64,000 bases of DNA from positions 3,371,001-3,435,000 of the forward strand of contig NZ_CP050699.1 of NCBI RefSeq assembly GCF_005116675.2, in the 5' to 3' direction. Made by a program: the position numbers and the translations under genes. The first letter of the stretch is position 1, and each line of letters starts with the position of its first letter. The notes under the pieces are model-generated. The model searched no databases. It had not been told where the DNA came from and saw nothing but the letters and a program-made list of their open reading frames with translations. This document shows, piece by piece, positions 31,131 to 36,961 of the stretch. This DNA comes from Desulfosediminicola ganghwensis (GTDB lineage Bacteria > Desulfobacterota > Desulfobulbia > Desulfobulbales > Desulfocapsaceae).

Positions 31131-32120
31131 ATGGCAATTTTTAGATGCAATAAATGCGGTCATATTCGAGAAGTTGGATCTGATTATGTCGGAAAATCTG
31201 TAAAATGCCCAAAGTGTGCCCAGGCATCAACCATTCATGACACTGTTGCTTTTCTTAACGCGTTGATAAAAAAGCATATATCCCAAAATAAAGAATTGAA
31301 TCTACTGCGTAAAGAATTGACTATTGAAAATTCGCTTCAACCTACCATTGAAAATATTTCTTTGGAAGACATTGATATTCATAATACCAATATCCTCACT
31401 CAAAAGCATAATCTTGCCCCTATAGAAGAATGGTTTGTAAAACGAAAGATTGAGGTGTCATTGGATCCAGATGCAGTTGATACTACAGGTTTTTTTGATG
31501 AGATAGCACTGCTATTAGGGAAGGAATTTGCCGTATTAAGTTATGTAAGTAACCAAATTAAATATATCCAAAACAAAGGATACACCAATGTTAAGCTTGA
31601 ACTGTCCAATAAAAATCAAAAAGAAATACAGCAAATCACATCATTTTGCAAAACTCTATATGACTATTCGTTTGTAGCAAAATACCATTACCAGAAAAAA
31701 GAAGAAGTTATACGATTAACACTACAGACCGCTCCGAAAATACGTAATTTTTTCAATGGAATTTGGATGGAGTGGTTCGCACTAATGGAAGTATTAGAGT
31801 TTTTCAGCAATCAAAATTTAAATTTAGCTTGTTCAAGAAATTTAGATGTTTCATTCCCTGGCAATAGTTCATATGAGCTTGATTTGTTCTTGTTGACAGA
31901 CAAGGGAACTCCAATCTGTGTCGAGTGTAAAACTGGCGAATTTCGTCATGATATTGACAAATATTTAACTCTAAGAAAGAAAATTAATATTGATAAAAGA
32001 CTATTTATCATTTGTGTCTTCGGCCTTAGTCAAGAACAAGCACAAGGTATGAGCAGTATGTATGATTTGACATTTGTAAATGAAGATAATTTATTAAATC
32101 ACATTCAGACTGTTATCTAA
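31131..32120 (+). CDS. Cassette gene: zinc ribbon plus PD-(D/E)XK nuclease-like protein
   Basis: The 329-residue protein has an N-terminal zinc ribbon (FRCNKCGHIREVGSD ... VKCPKC, residues 4-30), a charged central region, and a C-terminal restriction-like nuclease core: GIWMEWFALMEVLEFF, then YELDLFLLTDKGTPICVECKTG, giving the E/D ... D ... ExK pattern with ECK as the catalytic strand. The layout resembles the DUF1887 (Card1/Can2-type) nuclease domain. No partner methylase or CRISPR system is nearby, so a stand-alone defence function is only an inference. The gene is AT-rich relative to the chromosome and forms cassette 1. Confidence 0.65.
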   Translation: MAIFRCNKCGHIREVGSDYVGKSVKCPKCAQASTIHDTVAFLNALIKKHISQNKELNLLRKELTIENSLQPTIENISLEDIDIHNTNILTQKHNLAPIEEWFVKRKIEVSLDPDAVDTTGFFDEIALLLGKEFAVLSYVSNQIKYIQNKGYTNVKLELSNKNQKEIQQITSFCKTLYDYSFVAKYHYQKKEEVIRLTLQTAPKIRNFFNGIWMEWFALMEVLEFFSNQNLNLACSRNLDVSFPGNSSYELDLFLLTDKGTPICVECKTGEFRHDIDKYLTLRKKINIDKRLFIICVFGLSQEQAQGMSSMYDLTFVNEDNLLNHIQTVI

Positions 32121-32150
32121 ACCATGGCTCAAAGAAAATTATTAAAGAAT

Positions 32151-32920
32151 GGTTAATCGGGTAGCCGGGGGTGTTTAGCCCCCAGCCCCCACACCACCTA
32201 GCATGCGGGTCCGCACTAGGCGGTTCCCAAAGAACACCGGACCGTAGTCGGATGAAGTATATCCGCAGCTCTTTGACAGCAAGAAGGCGACAACTGCTGA
32301 TTACACTTGAGAGAGAGATGGTTCTTACATCGCGCCTACCAATGTGCTCACCCGGTCGGGTTCAAAGCATGGTAGAGCATATAAGATCTCTCTATCCTCT
32401 ATGGGTTTAGCCCTTCAGCGGGGTGAACCATCCCGGCTTTTCTATTTACCGAGCTCGTATCCAGTTACCATTGTCCCTTAGTGGTAACGTCCTTCGCCTA
32501 CTATGGCCTCTGCTGACTCCTGCCCAATCACCCTGCATGTTGCCATACAGGGCGCTGCCTAAACAGCGACCGCTCGTTGAACAGGCCTCCCCGGATAAGA
32601 ACGTGATCCTTCCCTACACGACCGCAGCATTTACCGTATCTCCTGAATCCTGGGCTTTGCCATGTGGTGCTGACTTACCCGGAGACTCGGCCTTGTATGC
32701 TGTTTCTGTCCGTCGGCCCATAGTTATGCACTCCGGCTTCCTCCAGACCACCCCTCACGAGGTCGCCCTTGCCTTCGGCTAGTATTTATGTTTCTGTAAT
32801 TAAACGGAAACAGGATTCCCATACAGGGGACTTGCACCCCATAAGATCACGCCCATGCCGGGCGTACACCAAACAATCCACCGGACTCGCTGAAGCTCGC
32901 CGGTGAATTTCACGCTAACT
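32151..32920 (+). other. attC of cassette 1, split by a group II intron
   Basis: Removing the intron rebuilds an attC: R'' GGTTAAC, then AATCCACCGG-ACTCGCTGAAGCTCG-CCGGTG, then a degenerate R' GCTAACT at 32914-32920. The CACCGG/CCGGTG stem is intact. R'' is complementary to the cassette's own first bases at 31076-31082. Confidence 0.6.
32156..32869 (-). mobile_element. ORF-less group II intron (IIC-attC type) inserted in attC
   Basis: On the minus strand the element begins GTGTACGCCCGGCATGGGCG (GUGYG-like 5' end) and continues with group II domain I phrases such as GGGGTGCAAGTCC and CTAGCCGAAGGCAAGG. Near the 3' end a domain V hairpin can be drawn: ACCGCCTAG-TGCG-GACC-CGCA-TG-CTAGGTGGT with the diagnostic two-base bulge. 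Domain VI follows (GCTGGGGG/CCCCCGGC) and the end is TACCCGAT. At about 714 bases it has no room for a reverse transcriptase, so it is an ORF-less form needing a maturase in trans. It points opposite to the cassette genes and follows exon bases GGATTGT, as attC-targeting class C introns do. Exact ends are uncertain by 1-3 bases. Confidence 0.78.
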
Positions 32921-32966
32921 AGAATAACAATCAATAAAACAATTTAGTTAAATTAAAGGAGTAATA

Positions 32967-33341
32967 ATGGGTATATTTTCTAGCCTTATAGGAAATGCAG
33001 GAGTTGTCGAACCAGATGATCTCACACATGAGTATGAAAAACTACTTGCAGAAGATGAATCAATAGAAGTTGGCTTTAAAGTTATTAGAGATACATTTAT
33101 TTTTACAAATAGACGTCTAATTATTATAGACGTGCAAGGTATGACTGGAAAAAAGATTGAATACCTTTCTATTCCATACGGAAAAATAACTAAATTCAGT
33201 ATCGAAACATCTGGACATTTTGACCTTGATGCAGAGCTAAAAATATGGGTAGGAAGTGCGCCTGATCCAATAGAAAAAACATTTAATAAAAAGGTAAATA
33301 TATACGATCTACAAAAGGTCTTAGCTAAGCACATATCGTAA
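32967..33341 (+). CDS. Cassette gene: bacterial PH-domain protein
   Basis: The 124-residue protein matches the bPH_1 family: EVGFKVIRDTFIFTNRRL, then IDVQGMTGKKIEYLSIPYG and the very conserved SGHFDLDAELKIWVGS. Members are small cytosolic proteins of unknown ligand. AAAGGAG precedes the ATG. Makes up cassette 2. Confidence 0.85.
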   Translation: MGIFSSLIGNAGVVEPDDLTHEYEKLLAEDESIEVGFKVIRDTFIFTNRRLIIIDVQGMTGKKIEYLSIPYGKITKFSIETSGHFDLDAELKIWVGSAPDPIEKTFNKKVNIYDLQKVLAKHIS

Positions 33342-33361
33342 TATAGGCGAAAAACAATATA

Positions 33362-33419
33362 AGCTAACCAGCTGTTCCACCGGACTCGCTGAATCTCGCC
33401 GGTCAAATCAACGTTCGAT
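33362..33419 (+). other. attC of cassette 2
   Basis: 58 bp: R'' AGCTAAC (33362-33368), inner stem CCGG-ACTCGCTGAATCTCG-CCGG, and R' GTTCGAT (33413-33419). The central loop is nearly identical to that of the preceding attC. Confidence 0.6.
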
Positions 33420-36055: not shown

Positions 36056-36961
36056 GTTGCTTCCTCGTTGGGTTCAGCTCCATGGAATTGATCAGCTCGT
36101 TTATGGTGGCAATGCTATCCTTTTCCGCGGTGTAGGTGAGCTGGGCGTAACGGGCAGTGGTTGTGGGGCTTGAATGCCCGAGAAGTTCCTGGATGTGGCG
36201 AAGGCTTAAACCCGCTTCGAGGAGGTGGGTGGCAAAGCTGTGTCTGAGGGAGTGGATGGAGACTTTTTTTTAATGTTACAGGCTGCAACCACCGCTTTCA
36301 TGGCCTGCTGGGTGGAACCGATGTTCATGTGAGAGGTTGCCCTGATGATGGTTTCAGCAGAGCCTCTATAGTTTGGGAAAAGCAGCTTGGGATGGCGATG
36401 ATCCTGCCAGAGAATGCGTAATGCCTTCAGGGTTCGATCAGGCAGTGGAACCAGACGATCTTTATGTCCTTTGCCTCTGCGGATATGTACCCGTCTGCGA
36501 TTGGCATCGATATCTCCGATCTGTAAAGAAAGTGCTTCCTGTAAACGCAACCCCATGGAGTAAGTAGTAAAGAGAAAGACCCGGTAACGGAGTTTGCGCG
36601 TGTTGTGAACAAGTAAGGCAACTTCTTCTCTAGTAAGGATATCCGGGATTGTTTTCACAGTTGGTGGCTTGACGATATTGAGCCATTGCCAGTCCTGCTC
36701 CAGGACGTGCTTCCAGAAGAACATCAGGCCGAGCCTGTCGAGCTTTACCGTACTCCAGGAATAGTTTTCTACCAGACGGGTAAAATAATCTTCGAGCTGC
36801 TCCACCGACAGTTGATCTGGGCAACAATCAAAATGTTCGGTAAGACGACGAACAGCCCGGGCATAGGCGCTGATAGTTGCCTGACTCTTGCCTTGAAGCG
36901 TAAGCTTTTTCAGGTGCCGATCGTAAAGGATTTCAAAACGTTTGGAATCTTTTGCCTTCAT
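36045..36961 (-). CDS. Tyrosine recombinase, two frames joined at A_AAA_AAG
   Basis: Frame 0 from ATG 36961 (AGGAG upstream) encodes a SAM-like N-terminal domain and the catalytic Arg in [11 protein letters not shown], but stops at 36206 after unrelated residues. In the -1 frame from 36263 comes [27 protein letters not shown], which carries the remaining catalytic H-R, H and Tyr, ending at 36045. The junction is A_AAA_AAG at 36269-36263 with frame-0 codons AAA AAG, the dnaX-type slippery heptamer. A -1 shift would give 305 residues, normal for the family. Without it the protein is dead. Either programmed frameshifting or a homopolymer mutation. Confidence 0.75.

What the first reader, a model, noticed from the sequence alone, without database searches (positions are those of the whole stretch)
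32156..32869. ORF-less group II intron of IIC-attC type lodged in an attC
The minus strand shows a GUGYG-like 5' end, domain I phrases, a domain V hairpin with two-base bulge and a domain VI, but only about 714 bases and no reverse transcriptase. It points against the cassette gene and follows GGATTGT, the attC bottom-strand target. ORF-less class C introns are little documented; it would depend on a maturase supplied in trans.
Basis: partly seen in the sequence, partly recalled or inferred. Interest (0 to 1): 0.85.

Follow-up and report, generated by a model that had tools for sequence, protein, structure and literature searches.

The report
Protein-less mobile intron in an integron
A 712-base RNA intron that has lost its reverse-transcriptase gene sits in an integron recombination site of a bacterium in whose genome no reverse transcriptase could be detected, and related genomes show that such stripped-down copies have moved and exchanged parts with complete ones.

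Summary
EBS1 (ACCA) pairs with a TGGT target instead of the usual ACAA/TTGT. The shared module sits in different D1 backgrounds, a mosaic. The host's single-contig genome holds a second full-length ORF-less IIC intron (c17), a third diverged one (c38, D5 not recognised by Rfam), two copies of another group II type, and no reverse transcriptase by two profiles. A helper in trans is inferred for the past; none is found in the genome today. Closest precedent: the ORF-less TeI3 introns of Thermosynechococcus. New variant of a known kind.

The parts
32156..32867 (-). ORF-less group IIC-attC intron, 712 nt (GTACGCCC...CTACCCGAT)
   Evidence: Three Rfam models; boundaries from the restored attC
32600..32764 (-). 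Domain I core
   Evidence: RF02001, 132.7 bits, model 1-170 of 170; the seven relatives with a 463-508 aa frame score 107.6-135.7
32665..32668 (-). EBS1 loop ACCA (most relatives ACAA); assignment by pairing with the exon
   Evidence: pairs with IBS1 TGGT just upstream of the intron
32868..32871 (-). IBS1 TGGT, last four bases of the 5' exon
32489..32554 (-). RF01998 match (3' part of the D1-D4 core)
   Evidence: 56.7 bits
32345..32362 (-). Remnant of the start of the intron ORF (GAACCCGACCGGGTGAGC)
   Evidence: Aligns with the ORF start of ORF-bearing relatives
32324..32385 (-). Domain 4 hairpin H1 of the ORF-less module
   Evidence: Helix 1: 95% of cells paired, 2 of 15 pairs with two-sided changes
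32263..32279 (-). Remnant of the C-terminal end of the intron ORF (CTGTCAAAGAGCTGCGG)
   Evidence: Aligns with the ORF end of ORF-bearing relatives
32256..32307 (-). Domain 4 hairpin H2, spanning the ORF deletion junction
   Evidence: Helices 4-6: 93-96% of cells paired, but only 1 of 16 pairs with a two-sided change; the window copy has a non-standard pair in it
32193..32224 (-). Domain V hairpin, CGC triad, 2-nt bulge (UG), shortened upper stem
32159..32190 (-). Domain VI hairpin with bulged A at 32162, 7 nt from the 3' end
32146..32155 (+). Left part of the split attC (AGAATGGTTA); 32155 is the IBS3 position
32868..32921 (+). Main part of the split attC (ACCAAACAATCCACCGG...GCTAACT)
   Evidence: Joined flanks align with the attC at about 33361-33416

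Best explanation
This is a non-autonomous group IIC-attC retro-intron. An ancestral ORF-bearing IIC-attC intron lost its reverse transcriptase/maturase gene by an internal deletion in domain 4, leaving remnants of both ORF ends that now fold as hairpins. The shortened RNA keeps its ribozyme core. Excised intron RNA bound to a reverse transcriptase made by another IIC intron was reverse-spliced into the folded attC bottom strand at the T(T/G)GT/T site and copied; that is how this copy arrived. Its EBS1 fits the less usual TGGT target. The protein-less form has kept moving, and exchanging parts with ORF-bearing introns, in several genera of the order. In the present host no reverse transcriptase is detectable, so the copy is now stranded: it may still self-splice but should not move. 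Shown: anatomy, target, shared deletion, different D1 backgrounds, recent duplication of the ORF-less form elsewhere, no RT match in this genome. Inferred: the helper protein, the reverse-splicing step, present splicing competence.
For: Rfam hits; core score 132.7 bits, inside the 107.6-135.7 range of the seven relatives with a 463-508 aa frame. attC restored on removal, also for c17, G140a and G140b, judged by eye. Same deletion junction in win, c17, G140a/b, G147, G163, G099:C77, G141 and G143:C44, with shorter or more diverged pieces in G148 (two), G135, G136, G063. D4-D6 alignment of 13 sequences: 92.6% of 814 cells paired (shuffled mean 90.8), 18 cells with two-sided changes (shuffled mean 7.2; slid controls 2-5), 7 of them in D4. 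G140 has two copies identical at 712 of 715 positions in different attC sites. D1 of the module carriers as one clade is rejected: six rows, lnL 161 lower; the four with a seen junction, lnL 160 lower; module identity among carriers 76-95%. No RT in own genome by PF00078 or TIGR04416, while 142 of 257 genomes of the order match TIGR04416, 72 over its cut-off.
Against: No splicing or mobility was measured. The helper is not in the host genome, so nothing links this copy to a particular RT. In G140, the best case for recent movement, only RT fragments are seen in a draft of about 70 contigs; an intact helper may sit in an assembly gap or be absent. In D4 the covariation is modest: 4 of the 9 pairs with two-sided changes, one of them in H2; helix 3 of the model is paired in 78% of cells. 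Without c17 the clade test is much weaker (three rows, lnL 40 lower, p-AU 0.0145), so the mosaic rests mainly on c17. Most relatives are unnamed or metagenome-assembled drafts, which can create or hide chimeras.
Confidence: 0.75

Rival explanations
1. A dead relic: an ORF-bearing intron inserted here and later lost its ORF by local deletion; the short form never moved.
For: No RT in the genome; other short IIC copies in the order have different deletions, for example G160a, which lacks query 119-618; the D1 tree forces at least 4 changes of the short state.
Against: The same D4 junction is found at unrelated attC sites in other genomes, two near-identical ORF-less copies sit in different attC sites in G140, and D4-D6 shows two-sided changes.
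Confidence: 0.15
2. A maturase-independent ribozyme that still splices by itself or with a host factor, as described for C.te.I1. Compatible with the best explanation as to origin.
For: Core score as high as in ORF-bearing relatives; no RT in the genome; C.te.I1 is described as self-splicing without a related IEP gene in its genome (passage of PMC4424553).
Against: It sits between cassettes, not in a gene, so nothing requires it to splice; no splicing data.
Confidence: 0.3
3. Kept as a regulatory or promoter element of the cassette array rather than as an intron.
For: An outward promoter is described for group IIC-attC introns (passage of PMC8876359).
Against: 0 sigma-70-like sites at 32000-33100, against a shuffled mean of 1.3; the ribozyme parts are conserved.
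Confidence: 0.05
4. The shared D4 arose by independent deletions at the same place, not by one deletion followed by exchange.
For: D1 of the module carriers is not one clade.
Against: Over query 373-640 the carriers are 76-95% identical to each other; over 471-640 they are only 38-71% identical to the ORF-bearing introns compared. Two other ORF-less lineages in the order have visibly different junctions.
Confidence: 0.1

Closest known systems
Group IIC-attC introns (S.ma.I2 type) of class 1 integrons
   Same: Ribozyme core, attC target, orientation against the cassettes. 366 plasmid records match some part of the intron; the 30 listed match its first 281-301 nt at 65.5-75.3% identity. One was checked: a LtrA-annotated gene beside the match, against the cassettes of a plasmid with sul1, qacEdelta1 and dfrA14.
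   Different: That intron carries a maturase gene; no plasmid place covers 80% of this intron, and its D4 module has no plasmid match. The name S.ma.I2 rests on papers (passages), not on a sequence comparison.
ORF-less TeI3 introns of Thermosynechococcus elongatus
   Same: One ORF deletion with shared break-points and ORF-end remnants, followed by spread of the short form; helper in trans (PMC2882425, passages).
   Different: Other intron class and target; there the driver RT is in the same genome and mobility was tested; here no RT is found in the host, the module is spread over several genera, and D1 backgrounds differ.
C.te.I1 of Clostridium tetani
   Same: ORF-less intron in a genome without an IEP-related gene; called the sole known exception in the 2015 review (PMC4424553, passages).
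   Different: A C. tetani intron in a surface-layer gene is reported as alternatively spliced (PMC3919590, title and start of abstract; that this is C.te.I1 is recalled). The window intron lies in an attC and shares its genome with other RT-less group II introns.

Membership tests
Group II intron | D1-D4 core, D5 and D6 in order on one strand | tested here: met
   RF02001, RF01998, RF00029 over gathering scores
Group II intron | D5 with catalytic triad and 2-nt bulge, D6 with bulged A | tested here: met
   CGC aligned to the AGC of the RF00029 consensus; fold
Group II intron | 5' GUGYG and 3' AY ends (recalled) | tested here: inconclusive
   3' end GAU fits; 5' end is GUACG, as in 32 of 41 introns; the own-genome copy c17 has GUGCG
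Group II intron | Splices | not testable with these tools
   No expression data
Group IIC-attC intron | Inserted in the attC bottom strand at TTGT/T, against the cassette genes | tested here: met
   Junction TGGT/T, one base off the consensus; empty site aligns with the neighbouring attC
Group IIC-attC intron | Sequence kin of ORF-bearing introns lodged in attC sites | tested here: met
   80-82% identity over query 1-372 to the ORF-bearing introns of G225, G129, G237, G185 and G198; flanks
Group IIC-attC intron | Encodes a class C reverse transcriptase | tested here: not met
   Longest sense frame 68 aa. The claim is therefore an ORF-less derivative, not an autonomous member. The RT class of the relatives was not tested
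ORF-less intron driven in trans (TeI3 kind) | Single deletion with shared break-points and ORF remnants | tested here: met
ORF-less intron driven in trans (TeI3 kind) | Related RT gene in the same genome | tested here: not met
   0 matches by two profiles
ORF-less intron driven in trans (TeI3 kind) | Mobilised by that RT | not testable with these tools
   Only indirect: two near-identical copies in G140

The most novel reading that the evidence does not exclude
This order of bacteria carries a SINE-like, non-autonomous group IIC-attC lineage that persists by exchanging its D1 and D5-D6 ends with whatever ORF-bearing intron is at hand while keeping its own D2-D4 module, so that it stays compatible with new helper enzymes; in hosts such as this one it outlives every reverse transcriptase and splices unaided.
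Probability: 0.2. Interest if true: 0.8.

Novelty: new variant of a known kind. Interest (0 to 1): 0.62.

Why it matters
The 2015 review calls ORF-less bacterial group II introns rare, nearly always accompanied by a related IEP gene, with one exception (PMC4424553, passages). Here one genome holds at least five group II introns or shortened copies (three IIC, two of another type) and no detectable RT, and the window's ORF-less form recurs across genera. It gives a further natural case of protein-less group II introns that spread, a step often invoked on the way to spliceosomal introns (recalled), and suggests exchange between protein-less and protein-bearing introns as something testable. Surveys that start from the RT gene would miss these elements.

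Tried and rejected
A hidden RT in the host: looked for with PF00078 and TIGR04416, none. TIGR04416 showed that G140 and G147, without a match to PF00078, do hold RT fragments, so I do not claim them as RT-free. G141 (89% complete) has no match with either profile and G163 (76% complete) none with TIGR04416; both are incomplete drafts.

A single clade for all ORF-less introns: rejected; in the D1 tree the short state needs 8 changes, at least 4 by well-supported branches. Two other ORF-less lineages have their own junctions: G062, G019, G099:C96, G029 (87-91% identity in the four pairs compared) and G015, G241, G253.

A clade test without c17: three carriers, lnL 40 lower, p-AU 0.0145, so most of the signal for mosaicism comes from c17. 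G172a is counted as a carrier although its junction is not seen (contig end); one search leaves it out.

A gene on the + strand across the intron: two antisense frames of 119 and 79 aa, no Pfam match.

Spread outside the order: the module signature gave 8 contigs in genome contigs, whose titles are Desulfobulbaceae, Desulforhopalus, Desulfobacterales or unspecified Proteobacteria, 0 in viral contigs, and the module 0 in plasmids. Exact-pattern scans miss diverged copies.

EBS1/IBS1 covariation: 3 of 3 introns with EBS1 CCAC sit at TGGT, against 7 of 28 with CAAC; Fisher one-sided p 0.027. One search examined 41 introns; 10 were dropped because my EBS1 pattern failed or caught another string. 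Weak support.

The length survey (27 introns: 16 short, 479-902 nt, three of them cut or of unsure end; 2 intermediate; 9 of 1563-1972 nt, 7 of these with one 463-508 aa open frame) used loci that I chose, not a random sample. Papers PMC2525955 and PMC3001079 are not held; what the former says is taken from the review.

Full report
WHAT IS THERE. On the minus strand, window 32867-32156 is a group II intron of the IIC-attC type. Rfam matches its domain I core (RF02001, 132.7 bits) and a further core piece (RF01998, 56.7 bits), and D5-D6 (RF00029, 42.8 bits). D5 has the CGC triad, a 2-nt bulge and a shortened upper stem relative to the RF00029 consensus; D6 has a bulged A 7 nt from the 3' end; the pair folds at z -4.16. 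That a CGC triad and a short D5 mark class IIC is recalled; that the triad is usually AGC or CGC is stated in a passage of PMC12350094. There is no ORF: longest sense frame 68 aa. Domain borders between D1 and D4 are my own assignment from the alignments.

TARGET. With the intron as GTACGCCC...CTACCCGAT the flanks join into GGTTAACCAAACAATCCACCGG on the + strand, which aligns with AGCTAACCAGCTGTTCCACCGG of the next attC at about 33361. The same treatment gives attC-like sites for the own-genome copy c17 and for two copies in genome G140. A passage of PMC7923331 gives TTGT/T as IBS1/IBS3 for this group. Here the target is TGGT/T and the EBS1 loop reads ACCA, where most relatives have ACAA; 3 of 3 introns with this loop sit at TGGT, against 7 of 28 of the others (p 0.027; 10 of 41 introns dropped). 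Around it lie two attC sites with this core, cassette-size genes of which one is a PH-domain protein, and transposases on both sides. No integron integrase over the curated cut-off lies in the window; a weak match at window 36135-36907 is the recombinase beside the IS91-type transposase. The genome has two integrase genes over cut-off, at C1:4119058 and C1:2972038. So the window array is a small cluster of attC sites away from an integrase.

HOW THE ORF WENT. Seven of the nine longer relatives compared (1842-1972 nt) have one frame of 463-508 aa; two (1563 and 1904 nt) have shorter frames. Aligned with them, the window intron keeps a piece of the ORF start and a piece of the C-terminal end and lacks what lies between. 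The same junction occurs in c17 (own genome, C1:1705063-1705767, 705 nt), G140 (two), G147, G163, G099:C77, G141 and G143:C44, with shorter or more diverged pieces in G148 (two contigs), G135, G136 and G063; by the kinship labels these are six genera. On 13 sequences the D4-D6 structure is paired in 92.6% of 814 cells (shuffled mean 90.8, 0 of 500 as high), with 18 two-sided cells in 9 pairs (shuffled means 7.2 and 5.6; 0 and 9 of 500 as high); sliding the partners gives 38-44% and 2-5 cells. Of the 18 cells 7 are in D4 (helices 1, 4 and 7), 11 in D5-D6. The structure came from eight of these sequences, which favours it in the slid controls.

MOVEMENT AND MOSAIC. In the window's genus, G126 has two copies identical over the 327 nt seen, with different flanks, cut by contig ends so that their ORF status is unknown. 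The D1 of the module carriers does not form one clade: six rows, lnL 161 lower, p-AU 9e-60; four rows with a seen junction, lnL 160 lower; without c17, lnL 40 lower, p-AU 0.0145. c17 is 87, 99 and 78% identical to ORF-bearing G143 over query 1-120, 121-240 and 241-330, but over 373-640 it is 88-95% identical to ORF-less G147; G140a is 96-97% identical to ORF-bearing G225 and G237 over 1-120, 92-93% over 121-240, and identical to G225 over 641-714. Exchange between ORF-less and ORF-bearing introns is the simplest reading, strongest for c17; whether by recombination or template switching is open.

NO HELPER IN THE HOST. PF00078 gave 0 matches and 0 first-look candidates in the 5,653,142-base single contig; TIGR04416 gave 0 matches and 0 of 1 candidate. 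The searches work in the three sister genomes of the genus, G126, G127 and G128, and 142 of 257 genomes of the order match TIGR04416, 72 over its cut-off. The genome is rated 97.9% complete with 4.4% contamination, so a missing stretch, a masked stretch or an unassembled plasmid could still hold an RT; the own-genome stretches that I checked hold no N. The host also carries c38 (C1:3856964-3856313, 652 nt by reading), a diverged IIC copy with a strong D1 match (130.1 bits) but no D5 match, at the other end of an attC, top strand; two copies of another group II type, one shortened; a 3' fragment; and a D1 fragment.

OTHER ORF-LESS LINEAGES. Two further sets with their own shared junctions exist in the order: G062, G019, G099:C96, G029, and G015, G241, G253 (the last two run into a contig end or lack the 3' end). 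So loss of the ORF followed by spread seems to have happened more than once here.

MECHANISM. Shown: anatomy, target, common deletion, different D1 backgrounds, recent duplication elsewhere, no RT match in this host. Inferred: arrival by reverse splicing of an RNP with an RT made by another IIC intron, by analogy with the trans mobility tested for T. elongatus introns (PMC2882425, passages); present splicing competence; stranding.

WHAT IS KNOWN. The 2015 review (passages) says that ORF-less introns are rare in bacteria, nearly always with a related IEP in the genome, with C.te.I1 the sole exception, and that few are likely to have been overlooked. My searches for ORF-less group IIC or integron-associated introns (listings, and passages of PMC8919778, PMC4424553, PMC7923331, PMC8876359, PMC2882425 and PMC12350094) showed no description of a protein-less IIC-attC lineage; the library holds open-licence papers only, so this is not proof of absence. 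A 2022 survey counts ORF-less introns as a group in complete genomes and plots Desulfobacter postgatei and Desulfohalobium retbaense among its examples (PMC8919778, passages), so such elements may already be in its tables. The order name Desulfobulbales is inferred from the record titles and from recall.

VERDICT. New variant of a known kind, interest 0.62.

Noticed in passing
L010 (G000:C1:1695000-1712000), about 8775-8128 minus; L118 (G000:C1:4108500-4114500), 2786-2394 minus and upstream: A second group II intron type (RF01999 plus RF00029) without an RT, two copies alike over about 360 nt, both in an attC just after GCTGAAGCTCGC. It looks like another attC-associated group II intron; the L118 copy, which is shortened, lies about 8 kb from an integron integrase.
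   Followed up: partly
L011 4465-3814 minus (G000:C1:3856964-3856313): A diverged IIC intron of 652 nt without an RT at the right-hand end of an attC (GCGT/TATGC), on the top strand, the opposite of the usual orientation; no D5 match in Rfam.
   Followed up: partly
G160, loci L059 and L060: One genome with 19 RVT_1 matches and IIC-like introns as short as 479 nt that lack much of the core, possibly decayed or further reduced forms.
   Followed up: no
G147, L048 2101-1268: ORF-less copy with extra segments in D1 and a 26-nt insert in the D5 tip; one D1 segment holds a GCGAGGAACGAGACTCC string that also occurs in the G029 copy.
   Followed up: no
window 36961-35003 minus: IS91-type transposase (Y2_Tnp) beside a tyrosine recombinase whose profile match falls in two pieces; the same pair of pieces recurs at seven places in the genome, this one included.
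   Followed up: no
L011 8359-8433 plus: A c-di-GMP-I riboswitch (RF01051, 47.9 bits) about 4 kb from the c38 intron.
   Followed up: no
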